NCBI GenBank assembly: GCA_031263015.1 | Contig: JAISGN010000002.1 | Span: 62,001-126,000 of the forward strand | Source of the DNA: Bacteroidales bacterium | GTDB taxonomy: Bacteria; Bacteroidota; Bacteroidia; Bacteroidales; P3 | Length of the DNA: 64,000 nucleotides | Direction of reading: 5' to 3' | Shown here: positions 7,584-60,687 of the stretch, one piece after another | How positions within the stretch are numbered: position 1 is the stretch's first letter | Layout of the letters: each line of letters opens with the position of its first letter | Program-made: the position numbers and the translations under genes | Notes under the pieces: model-generated | Databases searched by the model: none | Told to the model about the DNA's origin: nothing | Seen by the model: only the letters and a program-made list of their open reading frames with translations

Positions 7584-7612
7584 AACCCCACTACTCTTTG
7601 CTTCCGCACGGG

Positions 7613-7717: not shown

Positions 7718-7889
7718 GTAAAATTACAGAAAAAACTCACAAAAGCAACTTACAGAAAAAATTCAACCTCATTTCAACGCCTCAAAACGCCGTTTTTCAA
7801 AAATAAGGGCTTAAAAAAGGGGGTTTTTTAGCAACTTTGAAGTTGGTTTTTCGCCGTTTTGCCAAAATATTCCTTCCTTTCATTCCCAC

Positions 7890-8036
7890 GAAATCAAGCT
7901 TTAGAACTCTGAAATCAAGTTTTAGAATTCTATAATCAAATTCCAGCGTTCTGAAGTCAAGTTTCAGCGTTCCGAAAGCAAGTTTCGTGATTTTGAAGTC
8001 AAATTTCGAGGTTTTTAAAGCAAATTCCCTGTGAAT
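7890..8036. repeat. 21-bp lattice array B2 (seven units, locus-specific sequence)
   Basis: Seven units start at 7890, 7911, 7932, 7953, 7974, 7995 and 8016. The shared pattern is (G/A/T)AAnnCAA(G/A)(T/C)TT followed by a more variable half such as TAGAACTCT or CAGCGTTCT. The sequence is unrelated to the AAACAGCCTTTC family but the period is the same. Between 8037 and 8284 two more units are in phase with each other (ATGGCGTTTTTGGAA at 8152 and ATGGCGATTTTGGAA at 8173); the rest of that stretch has no clear feature. Confidence 0.85.
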
Positions 8037-8284
8037 AAAGCATTTGATTGGGATTGCGGATGTTGATTATGCTCCGAAAAAACGTCTCTTCAAATTTTCA
8101 AGACGGCACTTTTGTCCAACCGAAGGGCGTTCGTGGCTCTACGGGCTTCGTATGGCGTTTTTGGAATTTGAAATGGCGATTTTGGAAACTTATACAAAAA
8201 ATTGTAAAGTTCATTTGCGGGGGGTCTTGCAAGGAATCTGTAATTTTAAAGGGCGTATCATTCGGACGTTATTTGCTTCCGCCG

Positions 8285-8389
8285 CAATGAAAGCAAATAT
8301 TGTTGCTGCGGAAGCAAAAAATCCTGCAATGAAATCAAACATTGCAGGATTAAAGTCAGAGCGGCACGCACTAATGTCAGTGCGACACG
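8285..8389. repeat. 21-bp lattice array B3 (five units)
   Basis: Units start at 8285, 8306, 8327, 8348 and 8369, ending four bases short of the last base of the DUF4139 gene's stop codon. The units alternate CAATGAAAGCAAATATTG-like words with CGGAAGCAAAAAATC and end in GAGCGGCACGCAC and GTGCGACACGCAC. The CGGAAGCAAnnAAT word recurs in array B1 and in the nadE array. Confidence 0.8.
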
Positions 8390-8393
8390 CACC

Positions 8394-13542: not shown

Positions 13543-13731
13543 GTGCGTGTCGCACCGACATTATCTCATTTGCTCAAAATATAATGCTGTTTTAGGAAAA
13601 TGAAACAGCCTTTCGTCAAAATATTCCTTGATTTCATTTTAACGAAACAGCCTCTTAGAAAAATATAATGTAAGTCCGACACGGACAAACAGCGTTTGGT
13701 TGGAATATAACGTCAGTCCGACACGCTCAAA
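13543..13731. repeat. 21-bp lattice array C (nine uninterrupted units)
   Basis: Nine units start at 13543, 13564, 13585, 13606, 13627, 13648, 13669, 13690 and 13711 with no slip. The first begins at the base after the symporter stop codon. Units 1, 7 and 9 carry dyad-type words (GTGCG-TGT-CGCAC, GTCCG-ACA-CGGAC, GTCCG-ACA-CGCTC). Units 4, 6 and 8 carry CAGCCTTTC, CAGCCTCTT and CAGCGTTTG. Units 2, 6 and 8 end in the shared AATATAA. The clpC promoter follows directly. Confidence 0.9.
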
Positions 13732-22600: not shown

Positions 22601-23376
22601 GCTTCGGGGGCTTCTTGAAATAGTTCTTCCATTTCGGCTTCCGATTTTAAGTATTCCTGACCTGTGTACATCATTTTATTCTCATCGCTCAGTTTTTTGC
22701 CCGTATTTAAGCACACAAGCACGGTATGAGCCTCAAAATCGTCCTTTTCCACGAAATGAACATCGTTTGTGGCAATCAGTTTCACGTTTAATTTGCGGCT
22801 TAGTTCAATTAATTTCGCTCTAACAGTGTTTTCTTCGGGCAATCCGTGATTTTGTATCTCCAAATAAAAGTCTTCACCAAATACATCCTTATATCGGTTA
22901 ATTGCTTTTTCGGCAGCATTCATATCTCCGTTGAGAATAAGTTGCGGAATTAAGCCTGCAACACAAGCAGTAGCACAAATCAATCCTTCACTATACTCAA
23001 ATAATAATTCCTCATCAACTCTCGGTTTGCTGTAATAGGCTTCGCGTTGAAAGGAAAGAGAACTTAATTTCATCAAATTACTATATCCTTTTGCGTTTTT
23101 TGCCAATAATACCAAGTGATCGCCACCCGGTTGCAGTCTGTCTTTATCAAAACGGCTGCCTCGTGCAACATACACCTCCGAACCCAAGATAGGCTTAATT
23201 CCTTCTTCTCTTGCAGTATTGTAAAACTCCAAAACGCCATACAGATTGCCGTGATCGGTAATCGCAAGAGCCTCCATACGTAACTCTTTTGCTTTTTTAA
23301 TAATCTTTTTTACCGAAGCGGCGCCGTCAAGAATAGAATACTGAGTATGGACGTGAAGATGTGTAAATTTAGACAT
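19687..23376 (-). CDS. dnaE: DNA polymerase III alpha subunit DnaE
   Basis: A 1229-residue replicative polymerase. The PHP domain opens with FTHLHVHTQYSILDG, the catalytic palm carries the aspartates in PDIDVDFDD (about residue 455) with a further Asp-rich segment in the thumb-palm region, and the fingers include HATCYSYIAFQTGYLKAHYP. A helix-hairpin-helix (LAAIKGVGEKAAEEI, about 875) and an OB fold (VAGIVQSVNKRFSKNNKPFCSF, about 1045) follow. Domain order and length fit the DnaE1 type. The ATG at 23374-23376 has a -7 box 36 bases upstream. The downstream queG is probably in the same transcript. Confidence 0.97.
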   Translation of the reverse strand: MSKFTHLHVHTQYSILDGAASVKKIIKKAKELRMEALAITDHGNLYGVLEFYNTAREEGIKPILGSEVYVARGSRFDKDRLQPGGDHLVLLAKNAKGYSNLMKLSSLSFQREAYYSKPRVDEELLFEYSEGLICATACVAGLIPQLILNGDMNAAEKAINRYKDVFGEDFYLEIQNHGLPEENTVRAKLIELSRKLNVKLIATNDVHFVEKDDFEAHTVLVCLNTGKKLSDENKMMYTGQEYLKSEAEMEELFQEAPEAILNTQEVADKVEIYKMTRDPVLPIFDIPSDFGNIQEYYLKYPKETILNDIYEESLKKGEIAAEEKDYKEQKDLIERKLNEKGGYDKVVRTKFECAYLKYLTYEGAKKKYGEPLPENVEQRLSSELATIEWMGFPGYFLIVQDFINYSRETLNVIVGAGRGSAAGSVVAYCLGITTIEPLKYGLLFERFLNPDRISLPDIDVDFDDIGREQTLKYVRKKYGKDHVAQIVTFGSMAAKMAIKDVARVLELPLNESNRLAKLVSDKPGTKLEDAYKSEELKYELEHGNELVKRTLNLALKLEGSIRNTGVHACGVIIGPDDISKYVPVAKPTEKEENAFDNMMVSQFEGTLIESVGMIKMDFLGLKNLSIVKDACENIRKTHGERIDIDNIPLDDKQTLELYQRGDSIATFQFESDGMRSHLQNLKPDCFEDLIAMNALYRPGPMQYIPSFIKRKHGDEKIEYTFDIMEKYLAETYGITVYQEQVMQLSQALANFTPGQADKLRKAMGKKQKDVMEQLKDKFVKGCLSNGYDEQKVLKIWDDWGNFAEYAFNKSHATCYSYIAFQTGYLKAHYPGEYMSSVLTHNLKDISTISFYIEECLRQKINVLAPSVNESDLYFMVNKKGDILFGLAAIKGVGEKAAEEIIHSREKDGEFSSCFDFIQRVDQQIVNKRCIEALVKSGAFDCFGINRSQYFYCREGKDEQSFIEKLIRYGTKFKEIRDSSQASLFGENAEQTIENPTIPQCAEWEDLIKLAYEKEIIGFYISGHPLDAYKDILKQFTTNHVEDLSDLEALGKNEAIVAGIVQSVNKRFSKNNKPFCSFRFEDQTGTMEITLFGRDYLNYEKYLHEGYHIILKACAKPKWTADETQKKELELRITKMELIQELLPTYTTSISLTIKIEKMNNQLYDMIENAAKSSKGDVKINFLIIDTKNEVSLTLQSKKHLVNTENFLEKIQPLIGQELIESWKLNTKPL

Positions 23377-40145: not shown

Positions 40146-40940
40146 TTATACTGCGACTTCGGCTTTTATATGCGGATGACACTGATAGTTTATCAACTCT
40201 ATGTCCTCAAATGTGAAGTCAAAAATGTTTGTTATCTCACTATTGAGTTTCAATTCGGGCAAAGGATAAGGCGTTCTGGTCAATTGCAGTTTTGCTTGCT
40301 CAATATGGTTGCTGTAAATGTGAGCATCGCCCAGCGTATGCACAAAATCGCCGACCGAAAGCCCGCAAACCTGTGCCATCATTTGAGTAAGCAGTGCGTA
40401 AGAGGCAATATTGAACGGCACTCCCAAGAAAATGTCCGCCGAACGTTGATATAACTGACACGAAAGTTTGCCTTGCGATACGTAAAACTGAAAAAGAATG
40501 TGGCAAGGGGGCAAAGCCATCCTGTCAATCTCTGCTACATTCCACGCATTTACCAAAAGGCGGCGGGAATCCGGCGTTTGCTTTATTGCCTGTATCACAT
40601 CGCTAATCTGGTCTATCGTTTTGCCGTCGGCAGAGCTCCAACTACGCCATTGTTTGCCGTAAATAGGACCCAGTTCGCCGCTTTCGTCCGCCCATTCGTC
40701 CCAAATACTGACGTTATGCTTGTGAAGATAATCCAGATTGGTCTCTCCGCGCAAGAACCATAAGAGTTCATAGAATATAGACCTCGTATGGAGTTTCTTT
40801 GTCGTCAGAAGAGGGAAACCTTTGCTCAAATCAAACCGCATTTGGTAACCAAAGATTGACTTAGTGCCTGTTCCCGTTCTGTCCTCTTTTTGATTGCCTT
40901 CGTCAAGGACTTTTTTCAGCAAATCCAAATATTGTTTCAT
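40146..40940 (-). CDS. thyA: Thymidylate synthase
   Basis: A 264-residue folate-dependent thymidylate synthase, which methylates dUMP using methylenetetrahydrofolate. The nucleophile Cys lies in [12 protein letters not shown] (about residue 146), with [21 protein letters not shown] before it, [20 protein letters not shown] after it, and [15 protein letters not shown] near 207-221. Length and motifs match the E. coli enzyme. Its ATG overlaps the purD stop in an ATGA (40937-40940), and folA follows 5 bases downstream, so purD-thyA-folA are translated as a coupled set. Confidence 0.97.
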
Positions 40941-42211
40941 AACAGGTCTTTCCCTATATCACGGCGATAATACGCCCCTTCAAATTTTATTCTTCCCACA
41001 TTACGGTAGCATTTGTCCATTGCATCGTACTGATTGTTGCCAAAACAGGTTACAGCTAAGACTCTGCCGCCGTTAGTCAGCACATCGCCGTCCTCATTCT
41101 CCATTGTGCCGGCGTGAAACAGCAAACAATCTTCCGTGTTTTCAAATCCCGTTATCACCTTACCTTTTTCATACGCCTGCGGATAGCCTTTGGACACCAT
41201 CATAACGCATACCGCATAGCGGGAATCTATTTCCAGTTCATATTTGTCAAGTTTCTGTTTGCTCACTGCTTCAAAGGCTTCAACAATATCCGACTTTATG
41301 CGGGGGAAAACAACTTCCGTCTCCGGATCTCCCATCCTTACGTTGTATTCAATGACGTAAGGCTCGCCGCCAACATTCATTAAACCGATGAAAATGAAGC
41401 CCCGATAGTCTATTTGCTCATTTCGCAAACCTTCTATGGTCGGTTTGATGATGCGTTGCTCCACTTTATCCCTAAATTCTTTGGTTACAAACTTCACAGG
41501 TGAGACACTGCCCATTCCTCCTGTGTTAAGACCGGTGTCTTGTTCGCCAATACGTTTATAATCTTTGGCTTCGGGAAGTATTTTGTAACTTTTGCCGTCC
41601 GTAAGCACAAACATACTGCATTCAATACCTTGCAAGAACTCCTCAATAACAACTTTCCCGCCCGCAGAACCAAACTTCCCGTCAAAGAGCATTGATTTCA
41701 ATTCAGCCTTTGCCTCTTCCAAATCATTAATAATAAGTACGCCTTTGCCGGAAGCAAGTCCGTCCGCCTTCAACACAAAGGGCGGCGTCATGGTCTGCAA
41801 GAACGCTGCTCCGTCATCAAATGTCGCTTTGGTAAAACTTTGATAGCGAGCCGTAGGAATATGATTGCGTTCCATGAAAGCCTTTGCAAAATCCTTACTG
41901 CCTTCCAACATCGCTCCCTTTTGAGAAGGGGCTATGACGATAACATCTTTCAGCGCCCTGTCATCAGCAAAGAAATCGGCAATACCATCAACCAGCGGCT
42001 GCTCAGGTCCTACTACGACCATCTTTACTTTGTTCGCTATGACGAAATCACGTATGGCTTCAAAACTATCTCCTATTGCCGCATTGTTAGCAAATTCCGC
42101 CGTCCCGCAATTGCCCGGAGAGACGAATAAACGCCCCGTTCGTTTGCTGCGAACAATCTTCTCTGCAATTGCATTCTCTCTTCCGCCTTGTCCAATGAGC
42201 AATATATTCAT
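40937..42211 (-). CDS. purD: Phosphoribosylamine-glycine ligase PurD
   Basis: A 424-residue ATP-grasp enzyme of purine synthesis that joins phosphoribosylamine and glycine. [16 protein letters not shown] opens the protein; most homologues read GGREHAL, so here an Asn replaces the usual His (residue 13). [41 protein letters not shown] and [15 protein letters not shown] (usual: NxRFGDPE) follow in order. Length is normal. First gene of the purD-thyA-folA set, with a -7 box at 42243-42250. The gap to the divergent nadE is a 719-bp repeat region. Confidence 0.95.
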
Positions 42212-42242
42212 AGAAATTAGGTTTTATCGGTCAATAAGCCTG

Positions 42243-42250
42243 CAAAATTA
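42243..42250 (-). promoter_or_regulatory. -7 box for the purD operon
   Basis: CAAAATTA on the plus strand reads TAATTTTG on the minus strand, 31 bases upstream of the purD start, just outside the repeat array. Confidence 0.65.
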
Positions 42251-42280
42251 CAACTTTTTTTTGACTCCGACAACGCAAAA

Positions 42281-42462
42281 GTGCGTATCGCACTGACATT
42301 ATTTGCTTCCGCACCGATATTATTTGCGCATACAGCAATAATATCAAGGCATACCACAACATTATCAAGGCATACCACAATAAAATCAAGGCATACAGCA
42401 GCAAAACTTGCTTTTATGGGCATACAACCAAATAATATCGGTGCGATACGCACTTTCATTCA
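42281..42462. repeat. 21-bp lattice array G, left arm
   Basis: After the dyad GTGCG-TAT-CGCAC (42281-42293), units start at 42295, 42316, 42337, 42358, 42379, 42400, 42421 and 42442. Three of them share ATCAAGGCATACCAC/ATACAGC. The dyad GTGCG-ATA-CGCAC recurs at 42441-42453. The words reappear as reverse complements in the right arm (42680 onward), making the whole purD-nadE gap one imperfect inverted structure. Confidence 0.88.
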
Positions 42463-42479
42463 TCCAAAATCAAGTAATA

Positions 42480-42616
42480 TTCATCTGTAATTTGATTTGG
42501 TTGGGTGAAACATCGTATGTTTTCGGTCAAAACATCGTATGTTTCGGGGCAAAACATCGTATGTTTCGGGCAGAAACATCGTATGTTTCACCCAACCTTA
42601 TTTGATTACAGATGAA
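42480..42616. repeat. Inverted repeat enclosing four 22-bp palindromic units
   Basis: Four copies of the near-palindrome AAACAT-CGT-ATGTTT start at 42508, 42530, 42552 and 42574, a strict 22-bp step. They are framed by two 32-base arms, 42480-42511 and 42585-42616, which are reverse complements at 27 of 32 positions (outer and inner blocks perfect, middle diverged). This is the centre of symmetry of the larger inverted array. Confidence 0.9.
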
Positions 42617-42679
42617 CCAAATCAAATTCTGCGGGAATAAAAGCAAGTTTTAGATGAATATTCCTTGCTTTTGCTGCCG

Positions 42680-42904
42680 TATGCCCTGCTTTTGATGTTG
42701 TATGCCCTGCTTTTGCTGTGGTATGCCCTGATAATGATGTGGTATTCGTTGGTGTTGGGGCGGTATTCGTTGATATTGGTAATTTTTTATCTAATTTTGC
42801 AATTGCGGAAGCAAGAAATATCAGTACGATACGTACTTTTGCAAATGCGGAAGCAAGTATTATCAGTGCGATACGCACTAATATCGGTGCGATACGTACT
42901 TTTG
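42680..42904. repeat. 21-bp lattice array G, right arm
   Basis: Units start at 42680, 42701, 42722, 42743 and 42764 (TATGCCCTG or TATTCGTTG words), then continue to the nadE promoter. TGCGGAAGCAAG words alternate with dyad words: GTACG-ATA-CGTAC at 42824, GTGCG-ATA-CGCAC at 42866 and GTGCG-ATA-CGTAC at 42887, steps 42 and 21. The TATGCCCTG words are reverse complements of CAAGGCATA words in the left arm. Confidence 0.88.
42792..42904 (+). promoter_or_regulatory. Three in-register -7 boxes upstream of nadE
   Basis: TAATTTTG (42792-42799), TACTTTTG (42834-42841) and TACTTTTG (42897-42904) all match TAnnTTTG. Their spacing is 42 and 63 bp, both multiples of 21. The last ends 26 bases before the nadE ATG and is the likely main promoter; the other two may be decoys or extra starts. 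Confidence 0.65.
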
Positions 42905-42930
42905 CATAATTAATATAAAGAAACAAAGAA

Positions 42931-44466
42931 ATGAAGGTAGCAATTGCTCAAACGAACTCAAAAATCGGTGATTTTAACGCTAATGTTGAAAAAATAAAAG
43001 GAGTTTTAAGCCAAGCCAATGCTGATGTTATAACCATATTCCCTGAGTTGGCGGTCAGCGGAGGTCCTTTGCTGGATATGGTGTCTTATAATGACGTGTG
43101 CAAAGGGGCTTCGCAGGCGGCGGAAAGGCTTTGTGAGGAAGGCAAATCCTGCATTGTGGGTATGCCTGTGAGCGATGGCGTGAATGTTTTCAACTCTCTG
43201 GCGTTTATTGTCAAAGGCAAACCGACGGATGTGGCGACTAAGAAGAACCTTACTTGCTTTGACCGCTCTTTTGCTTGCGGTAACGGCTTTGAAATCACGC
43301 AATATGAGGACAAAACGATTGCTTTCGGATTTGAAACCGACTTTGAGGACTTTGTTGCCAAAGGACAGAAGGCTGATGTGGTGATTTGCGTTGCCAATAG
43401 CGTGTTTGAAGTCAATAAACAGCAGCAAACGATTAACAGAATGATACCTCTGGTTCGCAAGGCAGGCATTAAATTTATTTATGTCAATCGTTGCGGCGGC
43501 GAAGGGAGGTTTGTGTTCAACGGAGGCTCGTTTGTACTTAATGAAAAGGGCATTCTGTGCGATGAACTCTCGTTGCTGGACGAGCAAACGAAGTTTTTGG
43601 ACACCGAAACCTTAAAAACCTTCACTCAAAACCCGCTCTGCAAAATTGAAAAGATGTATAAAGCCATCCAAATAGGCATCAGGGACTATTTTGCGAAGAA
43701 TGGCGTCGCCAAAGCAGTAATCGGCTTGAGCGGAGGCATAGATTCGGCTCTTGTTGCGGCTCTTGCTGTTGATGCTTTGGGCAAAGAGAACGTTATTGGC
43801 GTGCTTATGCCGAGCGAATTCTCAACAGACCACAGCGTAAAGGACGCTTTGGATTTGGCAAACAACCTTTGCATAAAACATTACCTCATTCCCATAAAGC
43901 CGTTGTACGATTCGGCGCTGCAATCGCTTGATGAAATTTTCGCAAACACCCAAAGAGGTTTGGCAGAAGAAAACATACAGGCACGCTTACGCTGTATGGT
44001 GCTGATGGGAGTTGCGAACAAAACCGGCAGTCTTCTTTTGAACACATCCAATAAGAGCGAAGCGGCTGTCGGATACGGCACTCTGTACGGCGATACGAGC
44101 GGTGGCATCGGTGCAATAGGCGATATGTTTAAGGAAGAGATATGGCAGATGGCTCGATGGATGAATCGCAACGGCGTTGTGATACCTGAAAACTCCATAA
44201 CCAAAGAACCCTCCGCCGAATTGAGCTACGGACAGAAGGATACGGACTCTCTGCCCGATTATGCGGTGTTGGATAAGATTCTTGCCTTGCATTTGGAGAG
44301 CAGAATGAGCAAAGAGCAGATTGTTGCTGCGGGTTATGACGACAAAACGACCGAAAAAGTGCTGCAAATGGTCAAAAGAAACGAATGGAAGAGGCATCAA
44401 TGCTGCCCTTGCATCAAATTATCGTCATCGACGTTCGGAATAGACCGCCTGATGCCGATTTCGTAA
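42931..44466 (+). CDS. nadE: NAD+ synthetase with a degenerate amidase domain
   Basis: A 511-residue NAD synthetase, last step of NAD synthesis. The C-terminal synthetase domain is intact: the ATP loop GLSGGIDSALVAAL near residue 265, NTSNKSEAAVGYGTLYGDTSG near 368-390, and KEPSAEL. The N-terminal nitrilase-like domain normally takes ammonia from glutamine with a Glu-Lys-Cys triad. Glu39 (FPELAVSG) and a Lys at 104 or 105 (KKNLTCF) remain, but the ICED(L/V)W strand with the nucleophilic Cys is replaced by AFGFETDFEDF (131-141), without cysteine. The enzyme is therefore predicted to depend on free ammonia. The frame is open throughout, so this is a domain change and not a pseudogene. Confidence 0.92.
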   Translation: MKVAIAQTNSKIGDFNANVEKIKGVLSQANADVITIFPELAVSGGPLLDMVSYNDVCKGASQAAERLCEEGKSCIVGMPVSDGVNVFNSLAFIVKGKPTDVATKKNLTCFDRSFACGNGFEITQYEDKTIAFGFETDFEDFVAKGQKADVVICVANSVFEVNKQQQTINRMIPLVRKAGIKFIYVNRCGGEGRFVFNGGSFVLNEKGILCDELSLLDEQTKFLDTETLKTFTQNPLCKIEKMYKAIQIGIRDYFAKNGVAKAVIGLSGGIDSALVAALAVDALGKENVIGVLMPSEFSTDHSVKDALDLANNLCIKHYLIPIKPLYDSALQSLDEIFANTQRGLAEENIQARLRCMVLMGVANKTGSLLLNTSNKSEAAVGYGTLYGDTSGGIGAIGDMFKEEIWQMARWMNRNGVVIPENSITKEPSAELSYGQKDTDSLPDYAVLDKILALHLESRMSKEQIVAAGYDDKTTEKVLQMVKRNEWKRHQCCPCIKLSSSTFGIDRLMPIS

Positions 44467-47374: not shown

Positions 47375-50300
47375 ATGAAGTTAAGAAAACTTATTGTTTT
47401 GTCCTCGTTTGTCGGCTTTTTATTATCCGCAAACGGTAGTGTGGGGCAAGTCGTTTATGGCAATCTCAACGCCTATCTGAAAACGGCAAATGGCACAACG
47501 ACAAGTGCAGGCAGTGCTTCCAATCCATATCTTATAACAAGTGCAAGAGACCTTGACACATTATCATGGTATGTGCGTGGAGGGGCGCCTTCTTATACTA
47601 ATGTGGATTATTCCGCATTTTGCTCGGGAACATATTTCAAAATCACGCAGCATATTGATATGTCTGTAACATCCGGCACAGACCAGTTCGGAGGTGCTTA
47701 TACAAGAACGGAAAGAGCCTCCAACTTTATCCCTATCGGAGGAAGGCAGCAGAATGCTGATGGGTCTATTGTTGTAAATACAAACTATCAGTTTAGAGGC
47801 AGGATTAATTACAATGTAGGAGTTACGGATACGATGGAAATTTCAAACTTGAACATCACAGGAACGAACACCTACACCGGATTAATCGGATATCTATATG
47901 GGAATCAAATATCTTATACCCCTTATGTATACTATATTAAATTAATAAATCCTCATATTACAGGAGGTCAATACACAGGAGGTATTGTAGCATATACTGA
48001 TTATAGCTATTCTACTTCTTATGCCCCTAGTATTTATTATTGTTTTATTGAGGGAGGAAGTATTGCAGGTGCGTCTTATGTCGGAGGAGTGGTAGGTTAT
48101 CTGAATAGTTATTCCTATTTTTATTATTCGGGAGCAAAAAATACTACTATTACAGGGACAAGTAATAGCAACTATTATGGAGGAGTTTTGGGTTATCGTA
48201 GCAGTGGCTATTCTTATGTTTATTATTTAACATCGGATAATGTTAATGTCAGTGGTTATGCTTACGTAGGAGGAATAGCAGGCAATAGTTATTATCTTTA
48301 TTATTGCAAAAGTAATAATGATACTGTTATTGCCTCAAACAATTATGCAGGTGGAATCGCAGGAAGCAGTTCTTCTAATCTCTACTCTCAATCTACAAAT
48401 TGTTATGTTAAAGGCTTAAATTATGTAGGAGGCATATCAGGTAATGGAACTTCTCAAGGTAGTAATAGTAGTAGTACTAATACTTTTGCTACAAATTGCC
48501 ACATTGAAGGACAAAATTACGTTGGTGGTATAACTGGTAGTGGAAGTATATCTGGCGGCGCTTATGCAATAAATGATACAATAATAGGCACAAGCTACGT
48601 AGGCGGACTTGCAGGTAGCGGTAGTGCATCTTCTGCTTATGCTAAAAATCTGTACATTCAGGGAGCATCTTATGTTGGCGGTATGGTAGGACAATCTTCC
48701 GGTTACTCTACAAACAGTTACACTATGAATTGTAAAGTTAGAGGTGTTTCTTATGTCGGAGGTTTTCAGGGAACAGGTAGTTCTTACGGCGGAGCCAATT
48801 GTTATGCTACAAACAAGGTTGATAGAATTTCAGGTACAAGCGCCACCTTTGGAGGCTTCACTGGTAATCAGACAGGAGATACCAGAAACTTTTCAGGCTA
48901 TTATGCCGATACTTGGGCAGGCACTGACGGCGGAGGCTTGAACTGGAGCGACACAATGCAATACGACTACACAAAAAAAGCACAAATGGGTGTTGAAATG
49001 ACAGAGGCAGATATGCAAACAGATTGCTTTGTGCATCTTTTGGCAAAAAGCTCTTCTGCCGGATATGCTAGCGTTAGTTATAACATTTGGCAAAAAGACG
49101 ACGGGTCGCCCGGCAATGGCGGTTTCCCTACTCTTACATGGACAGGCTGGGGAACAAACCCAGCAACCTACGACCCTGCAACAACAGATTGTATGCCTGT
49201 CCTCGGCAGGAGCAATGCTTGCGGAGACTATCAATTGACCAATCATACAAATAGCAACTATACTTCAACACTCGGCACATCTTCCAATCCTTACATCATT
49301 GCAAACAAAGAAGACCTTGCTGTTTTGTCAAGATTTGTTAGAAACGACCTTACTCCTTACAACAGTGGTAACAACACATACAACTGTTATTTCTCACTTA
49401 CGGCAGACCTTGATTTGAGTTCTTACACCAATTGGACTCCAATAGGAGGAAGATTTTTGGATAGCGTACATTTTGCTCCTGCTCCGGAGTGGTTTCGGTT
49501 CGGAGGAATATTTGACGGACAAAATCATTTGATTTCTAATCTTAAAGTAAATTATGCCGGTCAATTCAATGGTTTATTTGGTAATTCATACTCCCCCAAC
49601 TTCTCATCTACTAATATCTCAAACCTTAGGTTCTTCAAGCCTAATGTCCGTGGAACAGGCTATACTGCTGCATTAAGCGGATATTCTTACGGTACATATA
49701 ACAACATAAGAATAGATAGTGCTACTATTGTTGGATCAGGTGGTGATTACGTCGGAGGTATTATTGGCTACAGAGGGATTCTGAATAACGATACAATAAC
49801 CAATTCTTCCATTACAGGAGGCAGGAACTACGTTGGAAGTATGGCAGGATATGGGTATGGAAATGTATCATATTGCTTTGTTAATAATTGTAATATCTCA
49901 GGTAGCGGTTCTTATACCGGCGGCATATCTGGTACTAACTCATCTTACACGTTCACAGATTGTGCAGTTAAAAACTCAAATATTAGCGGAAATTCTGATG
50001 TCGGAGGGATAGCGGGACAAGGATATAATTTTTCTAATTGTATTGTACATAAAATTTCAGTTACCGGAACATCTAGTGAAGTTGGAGGTATGTCCGGATA
50101 TAACAGTAATGGTAGTATTTCAAATTGTACTGCCGATAGTATTTCTGTTACAGGAGCAAATTATGTTGGAGGTTTAAACGGAAATAATTATTACGGTTCT
50201 ATTACTAACAGCCAAATAACCAACTCCTCCGTTAAAGGAACAAGTAACAATGTAGGTGGTATGATAGGTTATTCATCATATAATAGCTCAATTAATACAA

Positions 50301-53300
50301 GTTATGCCCTAATGGTAAAAGTTGAAGGTAACCAGTATGTAGGAGGACTTTACGGGTATGGGTATTACGGAACTATAACTAACTCTTATGCTATGGGTGA
50401 TACTGTTAAAGGTGTTTCTAATGTAGGAGGTCTTAAAGGTTACGCATACCCAAGTAATGGTTCATATATGACCAGCAACTCTTACTCTACTATGAAGATA
50501 AGCAGGAAGTCAGGCAATAATACTACTTTCGGCGGCTTGGCAGGCAACTCTGCTCCTTCTTACGCAAATTCTTACTACGCTACAAACTGGCGTGGCATTG
50601 ATGCTTCCGGTAACGATTGGGCTAATGTTCCTGATGGGGCTGACTTTGGCGACCCTGTAACCATACTTGATATGAGAACCAACTGCTTTGTGTTGTATTT
50701 GCTCGGCACTAATTCCAAAACAACCGGAGCATGGCAAAGAGCTCAATCGGGCGAGAACGATGATACTCCTGTTCTCAGAAGAGAAGCAAGAGGTTCCGAT
50801 GCGGTTGATGAGCAGGCAATGGGATTATGTTTCCCTGTGCTTGGCTATGGTAATTACAGACTTACTACTTCTCCTCCCGACTCTCTTTTTGATGCAAACA
50901 TAGGTGCAAGTGCCGATAACCCTTATCTTTTGGCAGCACCTGCAGACTTTACTACTCTTTCCCGTTTTGTAAAAGACGACTACCATAATATTGCTAACGG
51001 CAACACATACCAAAAATATTTCTTTGTAACAACTGACGTAAATATGTCTTCCGTTCCTAACTTCACTCCTATCGGAGGCAGAAACCGCTCAGGCAAGCTG
51101 GCTTATGATCAAAACTCTTTCTGTGGTATAATGGACGGCAACAACAAAGTTATCAGCAACTACACTATCAACAGTTCTACAGATTATACGGGTTTCTTTG
51201 GCATTATGTCCAATGATGCGGGTGTGGGCTTAGTCAGAAACTTCAACCTTGCTGCCCCTAACATTACCAGTTCGGGTCAATATACCGGAGGCTTTTGCGG
51301 AATGTATGGACGCTTTACCAATTGTAATGTTGTCGGAGGAATAGTTAGAGGCAACAATAGTTATACAGGAGGTTTCTCAGGTGCTTACGGTACTTTCGCT
51401 AACTGCATAGTTGACGGCACAAGCGTAACAGGTCGCAATTATACGGGAGGTTTTTCAGGATACACTCAATATACTACTACTACGACTTTCCTTAACTGTG
51501 CTGCAAATAATGTTAATGTTAGTGCTTCCGGTTATCAGTATGTCGGAGGTTTCATAGGATATATGATGAAATACAATGCTTCTAATACAAATATTACCAA
51601 TTGCTTTACTCGTAATACAAATGTTACAGGCTATTCTTATGTTGGTGGCTTTATAGGACAGTTGGCTCTTTATTCCACCGGCAGTCCTACTTACTGGAAT
51701 TATGTTCCTCCAATCCATAACGCTTTTGCCAGCGGCGGAAAAGTTACAGGCTCTTCTACTAATGTTGGTGGGTTTGCAGGCGCTGTTCCTATTGAAGAGG
51801 GACGCACTGACAACTTCCTTTTCAATATATATTCTACCGATACGGTATATGGAAGTACTTCTTCAACCGGCTATGCGGGCGGACTTATCGGACGAGGTGG
51901 TTATAATAGTACATGGATAAATCAACCTGCGGTAGGTCATTATTTCAACCAATGGCGAGGAGGCTCTACTTATAACCCTTCTTGGCAGGCAGGCACACAA
52001 CAAACACCTGCAACTATGCAAGCTGCTGCTTTTGTAAATACTATAAATGCAGGCTCTAATCCTGCCAATCCGTTTATGCAAGACCCTGCCGATCATAACT
52101 ACGGCTACCCTGTTTTCAAATGGGATGAGATAAAAGTCAATAACATTGCAGCGACCAATTTTGTTGCCGACACAAATGGTTCGGGACAAATTGTATGCAG
52201 TGCAAGACTAAATGCCTATATTCTTAATGCCGGCTTTATTGACAGCGTAGGTACATATTTCTTCCGCTATCGTATGAAATTAGCAGGAAACACTTACTCT
52301 GCATGGACAATAGCTCCTGCCGTGAAGCGTCATCCAGATACTATCAACTTTTACAAAGCTGACTTAACTAACTTAGTATTTGATACGACATACCAATTCC
52401 AAGCCTTCGTATTAACAGGGAACTTGTCTAATCCATTGCCGGGTGATACAATCTTCGCTCCCGACACGCTTTCTTTCTACACAAAAGACTATCTGGTATT
52501 AGCACTTGTGCCTACGGATATTGCTTATTCCAATTTCACTATGAACGGTTTGGTTGATGTATGGACAGGTTATGCAGCAATATCGTCTCTTCAATTCCAA
52601 TATTGGAAAGGAGCACCTACCATAACTTCTCCTACTATCACAACAATACCTATATCTCCTGCTTCCCTCGCTGTGAGCGACTCAATATCTTATGCTATTG
52701 CTCCTCATACCCTTGACCACTCCTCTCAATACTCTTATCGTGTTGTTGTAATTCGTGGTGGAGACACAATACGTTCGGTAATTCAGACAACATGGACAAA
52801 AATGTTCACTCTGCAAACACTGCAACCAAGCACTTCAATAGGCGAAGCCGACATCAATGCTTCGGTTGTATTCAATGGTGCTAAACCGTCTAACATTAAC
52901 TTTGAATGGTGGGAATACGATTCTGCCGTTACTAATCGCGTGGGCAGCTCACATATTGTCAGTGTAGGCGATGACTCTACGTCAGGAAATCGTACTGCAA
53001 ATATTCAAAACCTTACCACTCTCCATACTTATGCTTATCGTATTTATGCAACCTTTGACGGCTCTGTGCGCAATAGTGATACAATGAAATTCGTCAGCAA
53101 ACTTTTCAATTATCCTATTACTACTATCCGTACAGGTAAAACAATAACAATTACAGACGCTATTATTGCCGACACAACTATTACCATCAACGGTGTCTTG
53201 CCGCGTTTCAGAATAGAAGACGGAGGTAGTCTTATTAATCTTACTACTTCTCCGTTTATGCCGATTAACAACAATCCTGTTATAGAAAGAAAACTGCTCA

Positions 53301-54589
53301 ACGAAAGGTATCTCTTCGTCAGCTCACCTCGCGACACTATGTCCGCAAAAACTTATCTCGGTATTACAGGTGGTTTGGATAATCCTATATACGGCAATCC
53401 TGAAAACGGCTATGGAGTGTCTATACTTTACTTTATGTACGATTACAACGCTTGGAACGACAATTTCTCTTACATGACTTACTTAGGACGTAACAGCAAG
53501 ATGTATCCCGGTGAAGGTTATTTCGCTTATATGCTCGATGCCGACTTCGAAAGCAACGGTACGTCTTATGCAACTCCACAAGGTACGGAAGTGAAAAACA
53601 TTACAACAGGCGGTAATCTATATTACAGAGATACTACCATTACTTTGACTAATGAGGGTCCCGTTCATACTTATTACAGCCAGATTGATGCTATGTGGTA
53701 CTCGCTCGGCAATCCCTATCCTGCTAATATGTGGGCTAAAAACTTTATTGACACTAATGCAAACGAACTTAGCACACAATACATATATCGTTTCAAACCA
53801 GACCAGACTTGGCAACCACTCGGTGCAAATGCTTCCGACAGTATAAAAATGGGTGAGGGATTCTTCGTCAGCGGTAAGGACGGTGTAAATAGCAGAACGC
53901 ACTCCTTCGCTTTCAAAAACTCGCATACCGTTCATCCTGCCAAGAAGTCCTCAGTCATTGACTCTAAAATAAGCATTAACGTCATTGCCAACGGAAACAA
54001 TGCCAACGCTACGATGTTCATTAACCAAAATGCTCAAAACGGATTTGACCAATATGACGCTTATAAGATTTTAGGTTGGAATTATGATATATGCGAACCG
54101 TACTTTATAATAGATGACAATGCCGCTGCATTCAATTCTATCGCTACTATCCCGTATGAATGTCCTCTTAACATCAATGCATACAAGGACAACAGGATTG
54201 AAATAAGATTCGCAGACATTCCCGAAGGTTTAGACGTCTTTCTAATAGACAACGGACTTGAAACAAAAGTTTATAACGGCTACTCTTACAACACCGAGAT
54301 TGATGCCGGCAGCAACGACAACAGGTTTAAGATTCGTATCAAAGGTAATGCGCTAAACGATGTAGCTTCTAATGACATAAGTATGTGGATTGCCGAAGAC
54401 AGACTTAATATTAACGGAGAGAACCTTAAAGATGTGGTAATATACAATGCTCTCGGGCAGGTGGTGTATGGCAAAAACATATCAGGAAACGCTTTCTCCG
54501 ATATGCTTGCCATTCCTGACGGAACTTACACCGCTAAGACAACAAGCAAAAAGGCTTCCAAAACCATTAAATTTGTTATCGTTCATTAA
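47375..54589 (+). CDS. Giant GLUG-repeat surface protein with type IX secretion signal
   Basis: A 2404-residue exported protein with a signal peptide (MKLRKLIVLSSFVGFLLSANGSVGQ). Three large modules begin near residues 49, 637 and 1181, each opening with a SNPY(L/I)-(A/T)..DL..LS.(F/Y)VR-like line and then many GLUG-type repeats, roughly YVGG(I/L)xGxx every 25-35 residues, with Asn, Ser and Tyr rich linkers. GLUG repeats form a beta-solenoid seen in adhesins and peptidases. After about 1590 come fibronectin-like beta domains. The last 75 residues (from about 2329) match a T9SS type A sorting domain (LKDVVIYNALGQVVYGK, then GTYTAK and a final IKFVIVH), so the protein should be exported by T9SS and anchored outside. 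It is probably an adhesin; no catalytic motif was seen. Confidence 0.88.
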   Translation: MKLRKLIVLSSFVGFLLSANGSVGQVVYGNLNAYLKTANGTTTSAGSASNPYLITSARDLDTLSWYVRGGAPSYTNVDYSAFCSGTYFKITQHIDMSVTSGTDQFGGAYTRTERASNFIPIGGRQQNADGSIVVNTNYQFRGRINYNVGVTDTMEISNLNITGTNTYTGLIGYLYGNQISYTPYVYYIKLINPHITGGQYTGGIVAYTDYSYSTSYAPSIYYCFIEGGSIAGASYVGGVVGYLNSYSYFYYSGAKNTTITGTSNSNYYGGVLGYRSSGYSYVYYLTSDNVNVSGYAYVGGIAGNSYYLYYCKSNNDTVIASNNYAGGIAGSSSSNLYSQSTNCYVKGLNYVGGISGNGTSQGSNSSSTNTFATNCHIEGQNYVGGITGSGSISGGAYAINDTIIGTSYVGGLAGSGSASSAYAKNLYIQGASYVGGMVGQSSGYSTNSYTMNCKVRGVSYVGGFQGTGSSYGGANCYATNKVDRISGTSATFGGFTGNQTGDTRNFSGYYADTWAGTDGGGLNWSDTMQYDYTKKAQMGVEMTEADMQTDCFVHLLAKSSSAGYASVSYNIWQKDDGSPGNGGFPTLTWTGWGTNPATYDPATTDCMPVLGRSNACGDYQLTNHTNSNYTSTLGTSSNPYIIANKEDLAVLSRFVRNDLTPYNSGNNTYNCYFSLTADLDLSSYTNWTPIGGRFLDSVHFAPAPEWFRFGGIFDGQNHLISNLKVNYAGQFNGLFGNSYSPNFSSTNISNLRFFKPNVRGTGYTAALSGYSYGTYNNIRIDSATIVGSGGDYVGGIIGYRGILNNDTITNSSITGGRNYVGSMAGYGYGNVSYCFVNNCNISGSGSYTGGISGTNSSYTFTDCAVKNSNISGNSDVGGIAGQGYNFSNCIVHKISVTGTSSEVGGMSGYNSNGSISNCTADSISVTGANYVGGLNGNNYYGSITNSQITNSSVKGTSNNVGGMIGYSSYNSSINTSYALMVKVEGNQYVGGLYGYGYYGTITNSYAMGDTVKGVSNVGGLKGYAYPSNGSYMTSNSYSTMKISRKSGNNTTFGGLAGNSAPSYANSYYATNWRGIDASGNDWANVPDGADFGDPVTILDMRTNCFVLYLLGTNSKTTGAWQRAQSGENDDTPVLRREARGSDAVDEQAMGLCFPVLGYGNYRLTTSPPDSLFDANIGASADNPYLLAAPADFTTLSRFVKDDYHNIANGNTYQKYFFVTTDVNMSSVPNFTPIGGRNRSGKLAYDQNSFCGIMDGNNKVISNYTINSSTDYTGFFGIMSNDAGVGLVRNFNLAAPNITSSGQYTGGFCGMYGRFTNCNVVGGIVRGNNSYTGGFSGAYGTFANCIVDGTSVTGRNYTGGFSGYTQYTTTTTFLNCAANNVNVSASGYQYVGGFIGYMMKYNASNTNITNCFTRNTNVTGYSYVGGFIGQLALYSTGSPTYWNYVPPIHNAFASGGKVTGSSTNVGGFAGAVPIEEGRTDNFLFNIYSTDTVYGSTSSTGYAGGLIGRGGYNSTWINQPAVGHYFNQWRGGSTYNPSWQAGTQQTPATMQAAAFVNTINAGSNPANPFMQDPADHNYGYPVFKWDEIKVNNIAATNFVADTNGSGQIVCSARLNAYILNAGFIDSVGTYFFRYRMKLAGNTYSAWTIAPAVKRHPDTINFYKADLTNLVFDTTYQFQAFVLTGNLSNPLPGDTIFAPDTLSFYTKDYLVLALVPTDIAYSNFTMNGLVDVWTGYAAISSLQFQYWKGAPTITSPTITTIPISPASLAVSDSISYAIAPHTLDHSSQYSYRVVVIRGGDTIRSVIQTTWTKMFTLQTLQPSTSIGEADINASVVFNGAKPSNINFEWWEYDSAVTNRVGSSHIVSVGDDSTSGNRTANIQNLTTLHTYAYRIYATFDGSVRNSDTMKFVSKLFNYPITTIRTGKTITITDAIIADTTITINGVLPRFRIEDGGSLINLTTSPFMPINNNPVIERKLLNERYLFVSSPRDTMSAKTYLGITGGLDNPIYGNPENGYGVSILYFMYDYNAWNDNFSYMTYLGRNSKMYPGEGYFAYMLDADFESNGTSYATPQGTEVKNITTGGNLYYRDTTITLTNEGPVHTYYSQIDAMWYSLGNPYPANMWAKNFIDTNANELSTQYIYRFKPDQTWQPLGANASDSIKMGEGFFVSGKDGVNSRTHSFAFKNSHTVHPAKKSSVIDSKISINVIANGNNANATMFINQNAQNGFDQYDAYKILGWNYDICEPYFIIDDNAAAFNSIATIPYECPLNINAYKDNRIEIRFADIPEGLDVFLIDNGLETKVYNGYSYNTEIDAGSNDNRFKIRIKGNALNDVASNDISMWIAEDRLNINGENLKDVVIYNALGQVVYGKNISGNAFSDMLAIPDGTYTAKTTSKKASKTIKFVIVH

Positions 54590-54602
54590 GACTTTAACAA
54601 TA

Positions 54603-54770
54603 GTCCGTGTCGGACTGACATTACTTCTTATAAAAGGCTGTTGTGCGTGTCGCACTAACATTACATTCTGATAAAAGGCTGTTTCGTAAAAATGAAACAG
54701 CCTTTTATTTTTATGAAACGCCGTTTCGTGCGAGCGAAAGGCTGTTTCATTTTTGCCAAACAGCGTTTTA
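54603..54770. repeat. 21-bp lattice array I (eight units)
   Basis: Begins 14 bases after the GLUG stop codon. Units start at 54603, 54624, 54645, 54666, 54687, 54708, 54729 and 54750. Unit 1 has GTCCG-TGT-CGGAC and the next dyad (54644-54656) GTGCG-TGT-CGCAC, each followed by the arm ACTrACATTA. Other units carry AAAGGCTGTTTC, AAACAGCCTTTT, AAACGCCGTTTCG and AAACAGCGTTTT. Bases 54771-54867 show no further phasing. Confidence 0.9.
54673..54706. terminator. Hairpin from inverted lattice units after the GLUG gene
   Basis: AAAAGGCTGTTTC (54673-54685) pairs perfectly over 13 bp with GAAACAGCCTTTT (54694-54706) around an 8-base loop, followed by ATTTTT. This is a credible intrinsic terminator made from two neighbouring repeat units. 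Confidence 0.7.
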
Positions 54771-54867
54771 TTTTGAGCAAATGGGAAATGGCGACAACAA
54801 TAGCCGATAAGGCAACGATGAATGCCGATATTGCGAGTGTTAAAAGAAGAAAGAAAGGGCGGGAAGG

Positions 54868-57662: not shown

Positions 57663-57681
57663 AATCTGTCGTCTTTTTCAG

Positions 57682-57689
57682 CAAATATA
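57682..57689 (-). promoter_or_regulatory. -7 box for the TlpA-like pair
   Basis: CAAATATA on the plus strand reads TATATTTG on the minus strand. A second minus-strand match, TATCTTTG, lies at 57778-57785, about 96 bp further upstream and beside the repeat array. Confidence 0.62.
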
Positions 57690-57795
57690 ACAGCAAAAAC
57701 GCATTCCAAGTAACTTTTATTGTGAATAAACGCCATATTGTTTGCATTTAAGTTGCCGTTGCCCCGTTTTATTATTGCAAAGATATGAAAAACTT

Positions 57796-57963
57796 CATCA
57801 AAACGCTGTTTGTGCGTGTCGCACTGACATTACATTCTGATAAAACGCTGTTTCATTTTTATGAAAGGCTGTTTCATTCGCACGAAAGGCTGTTTCATTT
57901 TAACCAAACAGCCTTTTGTAAAAATGCTCTTTATGCTTGGCACAGCAATACGCACTTTTGTTG
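57796..57963. repeat. 21-bp lattice array J (eight units)
   Basis: Located in the divergent 412-bp gap 57663-58074. Units start at 57796, 57817, 57838, 57859, 57880, 57901, 57922 and 57943. Cores are AAACGCTGTTTG, then a dyad word (GTGCG-TGT-CGCAC at 57812-57824), AAACGCTGTTTC, AAAGGCTGTTTC twice, AAACAGCCTTTT and two diverged units. The rest of the gap before glnS holds only its promoter. Confidence 0.88.
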
Positions 57964-58036
57964 CAGCCAAATGAGCCGAAGACAGATTTAAACGATTATG
58001 TATTAAAATAAAGTGGGCTGATTTGTAAAAAAAATG

Positions 58037-58044
58037 TATTTTTG
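58037..58044 (+). promoter_or_regulatory. -7 box for glnS
   Basis: TATTTTTG matches TAnnTTTG and ends 30 bases before the ATG. Confidence 0.65.
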
Positions 58045-58074
58045 CAAATCATAAACTTAGGATGACATAATTAA

Positions 58075-59736
58075 ATGGACAATACGCAAAATCTTAACTT
58101 CTTAGAGGAGATAATAGAAAGCGACCTTAAAAGCGGCAAATGCGAATCTATTATTACCAGATTTCCTCCCGAACCCAACGGATATCTTCATATCGGACAC
58201 GCAAAAAGTATCTGCCTTAATTTCGGCTTAGCCAAAAAGTATAAAGGAAGAACTAATTTGAGATTTGATGATACCAATCCGGTGAAAGAGGATATTGAGT
58301 ACGTAGATTCAATTAAGGAAGATATAAAATGGCTTGGCTTTGAATGGGCATCGGAGAATTATGCATCGGATTACTTTGAGCAACTTTACGAATGGGCTTT
58401 GGTTCTTATAAAAAAAGGGTTGGCTTACGTGGATGACCAATCGCTGGAAGAGATTCGCCTTAACAGAGGAACAATTCAAAGTCCCGGCAAAGATTCTCCT
58501 TATAGAAACAGAAGCATTGAGGAAAATACGGATTTGTTTCAGCGTATGCGGGCAGGGGAATTTGAAGACGGGGAAAAGATATTGCGTGCCAAGATAAATA
58601 TGGCTCATTCCAATATGCACATGCGAGACCCTATACTATATAGAATCGTACATGCGGAGCATCATCGCACAGGAAATAAATGGTGTATCTACCCTATGTA
58701 TGATTATGCGCACGGACAGAGCGATTCTATTGAGAAAATAACACATTCAATCTGCACTTTGGAGTTTGATATTCATCGTCCGCTTTATGATTGGTTCATT
58801 GAGCAGTTAGGAATCTTCCCTTCACATCAATATGAGTTTGCAAGGCTGAATTTATCTTATACCGTGATGAGCAAAAGGAAGCTTTTGCAATTGGTAAAAG
58901 AAGGATACGTGCGTTCATGGGACGACCCGCGAATGCCAACCATAAGCGGATTTCGCCGAAGAGGCTATACGCCGGAATCCATCCGCAATTTCTGTGATAA
59001 TATCGGCGTTGCAAAGCGAGATAATTTGATAGACTATTCACGATTGGAGTTTGCATTAAGAGAAGACTTGAATAAACGTGCCGATAGAGTGATGGCAGTG
59101 TTAAATCCCGTCAAATTAATAATAGATAACTATGAAGGCGAGGAATTATTGGACGCTATCAACAATCCTGAGGACGAATCCAAAGGCTCACGTCAAATAT
59201 CATTTTCCGATACCTTGTTTATAGAGCGGGAAGACTTTATGGAAAATCCGCCAAACAAGTTTTTCCGTCTCGCAATTGGGAAAGAAGTGAGGTTAAGATA
59301 TGCTTATTTTGTAACCTGTACTCATATTGAAAAAGACGAACAAGGTAACATCACAGCTATTCACTGCACTTACGACCCCCTTTCAAAGGGTGGCAATTCT
59401 CCTGACGGACGTAAGGTGAAGGGAACGATACATTGGGTTAATGCAAAGAACTGTCTTGATGCGGAAGTGCGACTTTTTGACAGGCTTTTCACGGAAGAGA
59501 CGCCCGACAAGACGGATGAGGAGGGTAAAACATTCTTAGATTATATCAATCCCTACTCTCTGCAAATTCTTACCGAATGTAAATTAGAGAAATCCCTATC
59601 GCAGGCAAAGCATTTGAACAAATATCAGTTTGAACGCTTGGGATATTTTAGCGTTGATTACGATTCTACTCCCGAAAGGCTCGTTTTCAATCGTGCTTGC
59701 ACATTAAAAGACTCTTGGACGAAACAACAATCATAA
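58075..59736 (+). CDS. glnS: Glutaminyl-tRNA synthetase
   Basis: A 553-residue class I synthetase charging tRNA-Gln with glutamine. The HIGH motif is in [16 protein letters not shown] (about residues 30-45), RFDDTNP follows, and the KMSKS equivalent is VMSKRKL near residue 263. The beta-barrel anticodon-binding domain fills the C-terminal half, with RIHWV-type GTIHWVNA near 450. The direct enzyme implies that this organism need not rely on the GatCAB route for Gln-tRNA. Length and motifs match the E. coli protein. It is followed after 6 bases by a small barrel protein. Confidence 0.96.
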
Positions 59737-60381: not shown

Positions 60382-60405
60382 AAACATTGTTATCGGACAT
60401 TATAA

Positions 60406-60434
60406 AAAGGGGAAGCAGAATCTGTTTCCCTTTT
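60406..60434 (+). terminator. Hairpin terminator after the glnS unit
   Basis: A 13-bp helix with two G-U pairs closes a 3-base loop (AAT). The 5' side reads AAAGGGGAAGCAG and the 3' side CTGTTTCCCTTTT, followed by CTTTATTT. It lies 24 bases after the barrel-gene stop. Confidence 0.8.
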
Positions 60435-60485
60435 CTTTATTTGCTAAAACCAAGAGCCTGTGTGAAATAGATATTATTCCGTTTG

Positions 60486-60674
60486 GTGAAAATGAAACAG
60501 CCTTTGGTAAAATTAAAACAACCTTTCATTCGGATGAAACAGCCTTTTAGAAAATTTAAACAGCCTTTCGTTCGCACAAAACAACCTCTTATAAAAAAAT
60601 AATGTCAGTGCGACACGCACAAACAGCCTTTCATTCGCACAAAGCAGCCTTTCATTTTTACCGAAGGCTGTTTC
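60486..60674. repeat. 21-bp lattice array K (nine units)
   Basis: Occupies most of the convergent gap 60382-60687. Units start at 60486, 60507, 60528, 60549, 60570, 60591, 60612, 60633 and 60654. Most carry A(A/G)(A/C)CA(G/A)CCTTT after a variable 9-10-base leader (GTGAAAATG, ATTCGGATG, GTTCGCAC). A dyad word GTGCG-ACA-CGCAC (60608-60620) interrupts the series without shifting the phase. The last unit is flipped (AAGGCTGTTTC). The array ends 14 bases before the NUDIX stop. Confidence 0.9.
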
Positions 60675-60687
60675 ATTTTGAGCATCG

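What the first reader, a model, noticed from the sequence alone, without database searches (positions are those of the whole stretch)
42281..42899. Dyad word changes by paired substitutions, keeping its symmetry
A 13-base dyad recurs at many loci on the lattice. Its stem varies in a compensated way: GTGCG/CGCAC (7694, 8374, 13543, 42281, 42441, 42866, 54644, 57812, 60608), GTCCG/CGGAC (13673, 54603) and GTACG/CGTAC (42824). In the second and third forms both stem positions changed together. Central triplets are TGT, ACA, TAT, ATA or ATT. Unpaired forms also exist (13715, 42887), so the constraint is not absolute. Paired change suggests selection on an RNA hairpin or on a symmetric site for a dimeric protein.
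Basis: partly seen in the sequence, partly recalled or inferred. Interest (0 to 1): 0.78.

Follow-up and report, generated by a model that had tools for sequence, protein, structure and literature searches.

The report
Genome written on 21-bp lattice
The repeated palindromes sit on a 21-base rhythm that runs through spacers and most genes of this bacterium, written into silent codon positions, as if most of the chromosome were shaped by closely packed units of a DNA-coating protein that has not been identified.

Summary
The dyads are real: 147 genome-wide matches to GTNCGAYACGNAC against 0 for the reversed pattern. The "compensated" variation is essentially one double variant (GTCCG/CGGAC) that has spread. 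When copies are found by their flank only, 8 compensated cells, all this one variant, stand against 14 single changes. RNA-hairpin covariation is therefore not supported.

What lies underneath is much larger. The dyad belongs to an exact 21-bp unit locked onto a genome-wide lattice, N3-YR-WWW-Y-N3-R-WWW-YR-N3, which is its own reverse complement. The lattice runs through genes. With phase inferred only from codon positions 1-2 and spacers, 47,195 four-fold third positions follow the spacer profile (r=0.87; chi2 5600 versus 63 in the control). Steps are 21 or 22 bp, rarely 20, and register is kept for about 2 kb. It is absent from the ribosomal-protein operon and other apparently highly expressed genes. 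It occurs in some genera of one family and was not seen elsewhere in the order.

Best explanation: close-packed units of an abundant dyad-symmetric DNA-binding protein, about 21 bp each. The protein is unidentified.

The parts
42212..42930 (.). Divergent intergenic region (purD | nadE) made almost wholly of 21-bp lattice units of several word types, with 22-bp spacing in the central AAACATCGTATGTTT block; holds five dyads of the finding
42281..42293 (-). Dyad GTGCGATACGCAC (RC), lattice phase 14 = RC of phase 6
42441..42453 (+). Dyad GTGCGATACGCAC, phase 6
42824..42836 (+). Dyad variant GTACGATACGTAC, phase 6
42866..42878 (+). Dyad GTGCGATACGCAC, phase 6
42887..42899 (+). Uncompensated form GTGCGATACGTAC, phase 6
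7694..7706 (+). Dyad GTGCGATTCGCAC, phase 6
8380..8392 (+).
13543..13555 (-). Dyad GTGCGACACGCAC (RC), phase 14 = RC of phase 6
13674..13686 (+). Double variant GTCCGACACGGAC, phase 19
13716..13728 (+). Uncompensated GTCCGACACGCTC, phase 19
54603..54615 (-). Double variant GTCCGACACGGAC (RC)
54643..54655 (-). Dyad GTGCGACACGCAC (RC), phase 19 on its own strand
57812..57824 (-). Dyad GTGCGACACGCAC (RC), phase 1 = RC of 19
60608..60620 (+). Dyad GTGCGACACGCAC, phase 19, followed directly by AAACAGCCTTT
7584..8100 (.). Intergenic lattice array (GAAATCAAG-type words)
54590..54867 (.). Convergent intergenic lattice array, AAAGGCTGTTT / AAACAGCCTTT words
57663..58074 (.). Divergent intergenic lattice array
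60382..60687 (.). Convergent intergenic lattice array
42931..44466 (+). nadE-like gene with lattice in its codons (z=14.2 against synonymous shuffles)
19687..23376 (-). dnaE with lattice in its codons (z=9.5)
13800..16367 (+). clpB-type AAA+ gene with lattice in its codons (z=17.6)
58075..59736 (+). Glu/Gln-tRNA synthetase gene with lattice in its codons (z=21.9)
40937..42211 (-). purD with lattice in its codons (z=11.1)
47375..54589 (+). 2404-aa ORF without the lattice (z=1.5; random phase track): internal negative control

Best explanation
Shown: the dyads are word variants on a genome-wide 21-bp sequence lattice, consensus N3-Y-R-W-W-W-Y-N3-R-W-W-W-Y-R-N3. This amounts to RWWWY boxes spaced alternately 8 and 13 bp. 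The lattice is self-complementary, runs through spacers and most genes, steps by 21 or 22 bp, and is missing from genes that look highly expressed. Inferred: an abundant dyad-symmetric DNA-binding (chromatin) protein covers most of the chromosome as a close-packed array with a footprint of two helical turns. It reads DNA shape (pyrimidine-purine steps and narrow A/T minor grooves) rather than exact bases. Its footprint cannot overlap its neighbour, so steps of 20 are rare, while a 1-bp gap is tolerated, so 22 occurs. Either weak selection for binding or phase-dependent mutation and repair under the stable array has driven every tolerant site toward the preferred base. Spacers and synonymous sites therefore carry it most, amino-acid positions less. 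High transcription or codon selection erases it. In spacers, favourable units such as TAATGTCAGTGCGACACGCAC and AAACAGCCTTT have multiplied in register. The dyad and its double variant are two such units. The protein has not been identified.
For: Lattice: IGR autocorrelation at 21, 42 ... 126. Twelve random EM starts reach the same likelihood; the profile correlates 0.98 with its own reverse complement. Coding DNA: codon-position-3 identity at lag 21 is 0.327 against 0.267 and about 0.277 in synonymous shuffles; the IGR-trained model scores real CDS about 7500 nats above synonymous shuffles. Non-circular test: r=0.87, chi2 5600 against 63. Eight annotated genes have z=9.5-21.9 against synonymous shuffles. 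Close packing: 1807 +1 slips against 164 -1 slips and 23 jumps in 450 kb, while the reversed control is nearly even, 153 against 102 in 64 kb; model-free excess at +1 and none at -1 in CDS; phase coherence 0.52 at 168 bp, 0.37 at about 1.3 kb, 0.22 at about 2.7 kb, reversed control near 0. Shape-type readout: preferences are Y/R/W classes. Expression: ribosomal operon C1:15-34 kb scores -9 to 6 per kb between lattice-bearing flanks; rho=-0.69 with RP-like codon usage; spacers beside lattice-poor genes are also weaker, 29 against 59 per kb. Dyads locked to phases 6 and 19.
Against: No protein identified. HU-like copy number does not follow the lattice; archaeal-type histones and Lrp/AsnC proteins give no match at E<=0.001. 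The effect of expression was not separated from codon selection, and the RP-like codon correlation is partly mechanical because ribosomal genes are themselves lattice-free. Spacers have fewer 22-steps than genes (2.3 against 4.2 per kb), which simple packing does not predict. Lattice strength varies strongly among relatives, and in G013 the same profile is not detectable in coding DNA although its spacers show excess at lag 21. Whether register is conserved at orthologous codons was inconclusive. About 20% of 1-kb windows score 5 or less.
Confidence: 0.5

Rival explanations
1. No protein lattice: selection or mutation acts on intrinsic DNA shape phased with the helix (curvature, supercoiling, writhe); 21.08 bp is twice a helical repeat of 10.54 bp.
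For: Mean CDS period 21.08 is close to twice the B-DNA helical repeat (general knowledge); phased A/T tracts are involved; weaker 10-11 bp periodicities are widespread and argued to be selected (PMC7537859, PMC1242344).
Against: A/T boxes lie 8 and 13 bp apart, not 10.5; lag 10-11 shows little signal while 21 is strong; spacer period 21.04 differs from CDS 21.08; register kept for kilobases with almost only +1 slips needs neighbour contact, not only local bending.
Confidence: 0.17
2. The words are satellite-like or mobile repeats spread by tandem duplication, slippage and ectopic conversion; the lattice is only their fossil register.
For: Tandem arrays; identical words at many spacers, species-specific dictionaries; one double variant copied.
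Against: Cannot explain 21-bp phasing of synonymous sites in dnaE, clpB, purD, nadE and others, nor the base-class profile shared with other genera. It probably is how individual words multiply.
Confidence: 0.06
3. Phase-dependent mutation or repair, without selection on binding, is the driver (protein array present).
For: Amplitude falls with constraint: IGR 0.55, four-fold 0.41, position 1 0.18, position 2 0.14; amino-acid identity at lag 7 raised; genes with strong codon selection lack it.
Against: Weak selection predicts the same gradient; no polymorphism or mutation-accumulation data here.
Confidence: 0.2
4. The dyad is an RNA hairpin (terminator or processing signal) with compensatory evolution.
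For: The words fold as 5-bp stem/triloop hairpins, -4.9 to -8.6 kcal/mol; four terminator-like matches in 42212-42930 against 0.6 expected.
Against: Compensation is a single double variant, with 14 single changes against 8; copies lie in divergent, convergent and tandem spacers in both orientations; no long U tract follows; phase is locked to a DNA lattice that also runs through genes.
Confidence: 0.06
5. The dyads are operators of one dimeric transcription factor, independent of the lattice.
For: Perfect 13-bp inverted repeat, about 150 sites, mostly in spacers; TAATGTCA flank conserved.
Against: Copies sit nearly always at two lattice phases, 6 and 19, and the word is absent from congeners.
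Confidence: 0.1

Closest known systems
10-11 bp sequence periodicity of prokaryotic genomes / class A flexible patterns (Larsabal and Danchin 2005, PMC1242344; Atzinger and Lawrence 2020, PMC7537859)
   Same: Genome-wide, in coding and non-coding DNA, carried partly by third codon positions; proposed dense protein interaction sites
   Different: Here the period is 21 (21/22 steps), with a defined dyad-symmetric 21-bp profile and register kept for kilobases; the class A patterns are described as spanning up to 50 bp
Nucleosome-positioning sequence periodicity in eukaryotes and archaea (general knowledge)
   Same: Chromatin protein with shape readout written into sequence; weaker in strongly expressed genes
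   Different: No archaeal-type histone gene found; contiguous 21-bp units instead of about 10 bp within 147- or 30-bp particles; register runs through genes
Porphyromonas gingivalis and other Bacteroidota short intergenic direct repeats (genome repeats discussed in PMC5771137)
   Same: Short direct repeats of similar size in spacers of Bacteroidota
   Different: Not known to me to be in register with coding DNA (only the listing of that paper was seen); here spacers are the visible part of a genome-wide lattice
Lrp/FFRP dimers (15-bp palindromes, DNA wrapping; general knowledge)
   Same: A/T-rich dyad of about 15 bp, multimeric DNA coverage
   Different: No Lrp/AsnC family gene in any of 15 genomes

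Membership tests
10-11 bp helical periodicity (class A patterns / phased A-tracts) | Autocorrelation peak at 10-11 bp | tested here: not met
   Lag 10 and 11 are 0.279 and 0.281, like neighbours; lag 21 is 0.371
10-11 bp helical periodicity (class A patterns / phased A-tracts) | Present in both coding and non-coding DNA | tested here: met
10-11 bp helical periodicity (class A patterns / phased A-tracts) | Short range (occurrences up to about 50 bp) | tested here: not met
   Register correlation 0.37 at about 1.3 kb
RNA hairpin with compensatory evolution | Several independent paired changes exceeding single changes | tested here: not met
   8 compensated cells, all one variant, against 14 single changes
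RNA hairpin with compensatory evolution | Transcript ends at the hairpin | not testable with these tools
   No RNA-seq
Histone chromatin (archaeal type) | Histone-fold gene (PF00808) | tested here: not met
   0 of 21 genomes; control rings in 3 archaea
HU-based chromatin | HU-family genes present | tested here: met
   5 HU-HIG matches in G000, but also in every genome without the lattice
HU-based chromatin | HU occupancy in phase with the lattice | not testable with these tools
   Needs ChIP or footprinting
Lrp/FFRP array | Lrp/AsnC ligand domain gene (PF01037) | tested here: not met
   0 of 15 genomes
Tandem-repeat / satellite array | Explained by head-to-tail copies of one unit | tested here: inconclusive
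   True within spacers; not for synonymous sites of genes

The most novel reading that the evidence does not exclude
A bacterial chromatin with a 21-bp repeating unit: a near-contiguous, close-packed dyad-symmetric protein coat whose register is written into spacers, synonymous codons and even amino-acid choice over most of the genome, and which has evolved within one bacterial family and varies between sister species.
Probability: 0.42. Interest if true: 0.95.

Novelty: categorically new. Interest (0 to 1): 0.84.

Why it matters
If right, a chromosome carries a second, positional code: most of its bases sit at a definable phase of a protein-sized lattice, and genes pay for it in codon and amino-acid choice. 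Nucleoid architecture could then be read from sequence alone. Lattice-bearing and lattice-free species within one genus (for example G028 and G007) give a natural comparison for finding the responsible gene and for asking whether chromatin shapes genomes through selection or mutation. Phase maps could also help to date foreign genes and predict expression. Even without the protein, the phenomenon is a strong, testable departure from the weak 10-11 bp periodicities described for bacteria.

Tried and rejected
Known RNA families: only a tRNA in the window. Candidate proteins: HU-HIG counts (5 in G000, 39-50 in lattice-free g2) do not track the lattice; histone and Lrp/AsnC give no match. Exact-word search in relatives first suggested a species-only feature; this was wrong, since the lattice is shared but the words are not. 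EM training on relatives' whole DNA was swamped by codon periodicity, so the masked-position test was used instead. Distances between perfect 15-mer cores are too sparse in CDS to be informative. Register conservation at orthologous codons is inconclusive: all-position inference agrees within the genus (R 0.65 and 0.54), third-position-only inference does not (R 0.04 and 0.10), with few genes. Literature: six searches, no description of a 21-bp bacterial lattice.

Full report
The observation. All 14 dyads exist, four with small coordinate errors. GTNCGAYACGNAC has 147 matches in the 1.87-Mb genome and none when the pattern is read backwards. Of the 100 places printed I count 78 G..C, 15 C..G, 1 A..T and 6 uncompensated. 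That list already demands the other arm positions, so it cannot test covariation fairly. Anchoring copies only on the flank TAAYRTMN and the AYA centre gives 49 recognisable copies. There are 8 compensated cells, all GTCCG/CGGAC, and 14 single changes; pairs 1 and 2 show only single changes, and pairs 4 and 5 never vary. Eight exceeds permutation (mean 2.4, maximum 6), but it is one double variant inherited by copying. The dyad word is absent from three congeners. The unit is exactly 21 bp, TAATGTCA+GTGCGAYACGCAC, found nearly always at lattice phase 6 or 19, that is two registers 8 bp apart. It can fold as RNA, but orientation, position and the lattice make an RNA role unlikely.

The lattice. 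Spacers in a 450-kb sample of this genome show autocorrelation 0.371 at lag 21 and 0.333 at lag 126, with most other lags near 0.28. A cyclic 21-state model trained on spacers from 12 random starts always reaches the same likelihood. The profile is N3 YR WWW Y N3 R WWW YR N3 and correlates 0.98 with its own reverse complement. It can be seen as RWWWY boxes 8 and 13 bp apart in alternation. The commonest spacer cores are AAACAGCCTTT, AAACGCCGTTT and AAACAGCGTTT.

Coding DNA. Codon position 3 shows identity 0.327 at lag 21 against 0.267 at neighbours, still 0.299 at lag 147. Synonymous shuffles give about 0.277, and the spacer-trained model prefers real genes to shuffled ones by about 7500 nats. 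In the decisive test, phase was inferred with all third positions masked. The 47,195 four-fold sites then follow the spacer profile with r=0.87 and chi2 5600 on 60 degrees of freedom; the control gives 63. Codon positions 1 and 2, with phase from position 3, follow it too, more weakly. Amplitude falls with constraint: 0.55 spacers, 0.41 four-fold, 0.18 and 0.14 at positions 1 and 2. Eight window genes with Pfam annotation, dnaE and clpB among them, have z of 9.5 to 21.9 against synonymous shuffles; the 2404-aa ORF has 1.5. The same procedure on lattice-free relatives gives nothing, which excludes a codon-structure artefact.

Register. Independent 147-bp windows across 64 kb give a phase track that drifts in one direction. 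Decoding 450 kb finds 1807 steps of +1, 164 of -1 and 23 jumps; the reversed control is nearly even. Model-free autocorrelation in genes shows excess at +1 and none at -1. Phase agreement decays from 0.52 at 168 bp to 0.22 at about 2.7 kb and 0.05 at about 5.4 kb, against near 0 in the control. Units that may not overlap but may leave a 1-bp gap would give this.

Where it is missing. About 80% of 1-kb windows score above 5 nats over the reversed control. The ribosomal-protein superoperon is blank for about 19 kb between lattice-rich flanks. Other blank genes are glutamate dehydrogenase, gyrB, purA, floA, gcvP, nuoF and a T9SS-secreted protein. The richest are glycosyltransferase, histidine kinase, phosphoesterase and unknown proteins. 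Lattice score correlates -0.69 with ribosomal-type codon usage, partly by construction. That these genes are highly expressed is inferred, not measured. Spacers beside blank genes are weaker too, 29 against 59 per kb, which hints at exclusion by transcription in addition to codon selection.

Distribution. The two-unit pattern exceeds its reversed control in all four genomes of the genus and in several species of three further genera of the family; six other genera have next to none. Among 146 other genomes of the order (112 families sampled) none shows a comparable excess; the largest is G280 with 26 to 2. The same profile is found in coding DNA of G003, G027, G006 and G028, not in G007, G011, G037 or G044. 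Words differ between species while the 21-bp step stays. The analysed genome is the strongest of those examined.

Mechanism. Base classes rather than exact bases, symmetry, close packing and loss in apparently active genes point to an abundant chromatin protein with a 21-bp footprint. That step is inference. Histone-fold and Lrp proteins give no match and HU copy number does not follow the lattice. Selection for binding and phase-dependent mutation make the same predictions here. Pure helix-phase curvature is disfavoured by the 8/13 spacing and by the long register, but not excluded.

Known work. Weak 10-11 bp periodicities cover prokaryotic genomes (PMC1242344) and are argued to be selected (PMC7537859). 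A defined 21-bp dyad lattice with kilobase register was not found in six literature searches of an open-access library, so a description in a subscription journal cannot be excluded.

Noticed in passing
window 42212-42930: The whole spacer is also a large imperfect palindrome about position 42548: arms 42327-42406/42690-42769 and 42480-42544/42552-42616, 75-79% complementary.
   Followed up: no
window 25496-25808: A different tandem array with 41/42-bp period (GGTCTCAAATAACCTGTGGGAAG type, then AATGTATGGCGTACATT); several of the window's rare -1 slips lie in and just after it.
   Followed up: partly
window 47375-54589: 2404-aa ORF with no Pfam match and no lattice; its phase track is random although both flanks are in register.
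   Followed up: partly
G004 and G034 (genus g2 of the same family): 39 and 50 HU-HIG domain matches against 5 in the window's genome; large HU-family expansion in genomes without the lattice.
   Followed up: no
G235:C132:9111-9251: Another family of the order holds a local 21-bp tandem array (CGAATCTCTGTTATATCAGAA) that fits the lattice pattern, without genome-wide excess.
   Followed up: no
own-genome sample, genes: Lattice score of genes rises with GC3 (rho 0.62); lattice-poor genes have low GC3.
   Followed up: no
own-genome sample: 22-bp steps are about twice as frequent in genes (4.2/kb) as in spacers (2.3/kb), perhaps because they let the lattice change codon register.
   Followed up: partly
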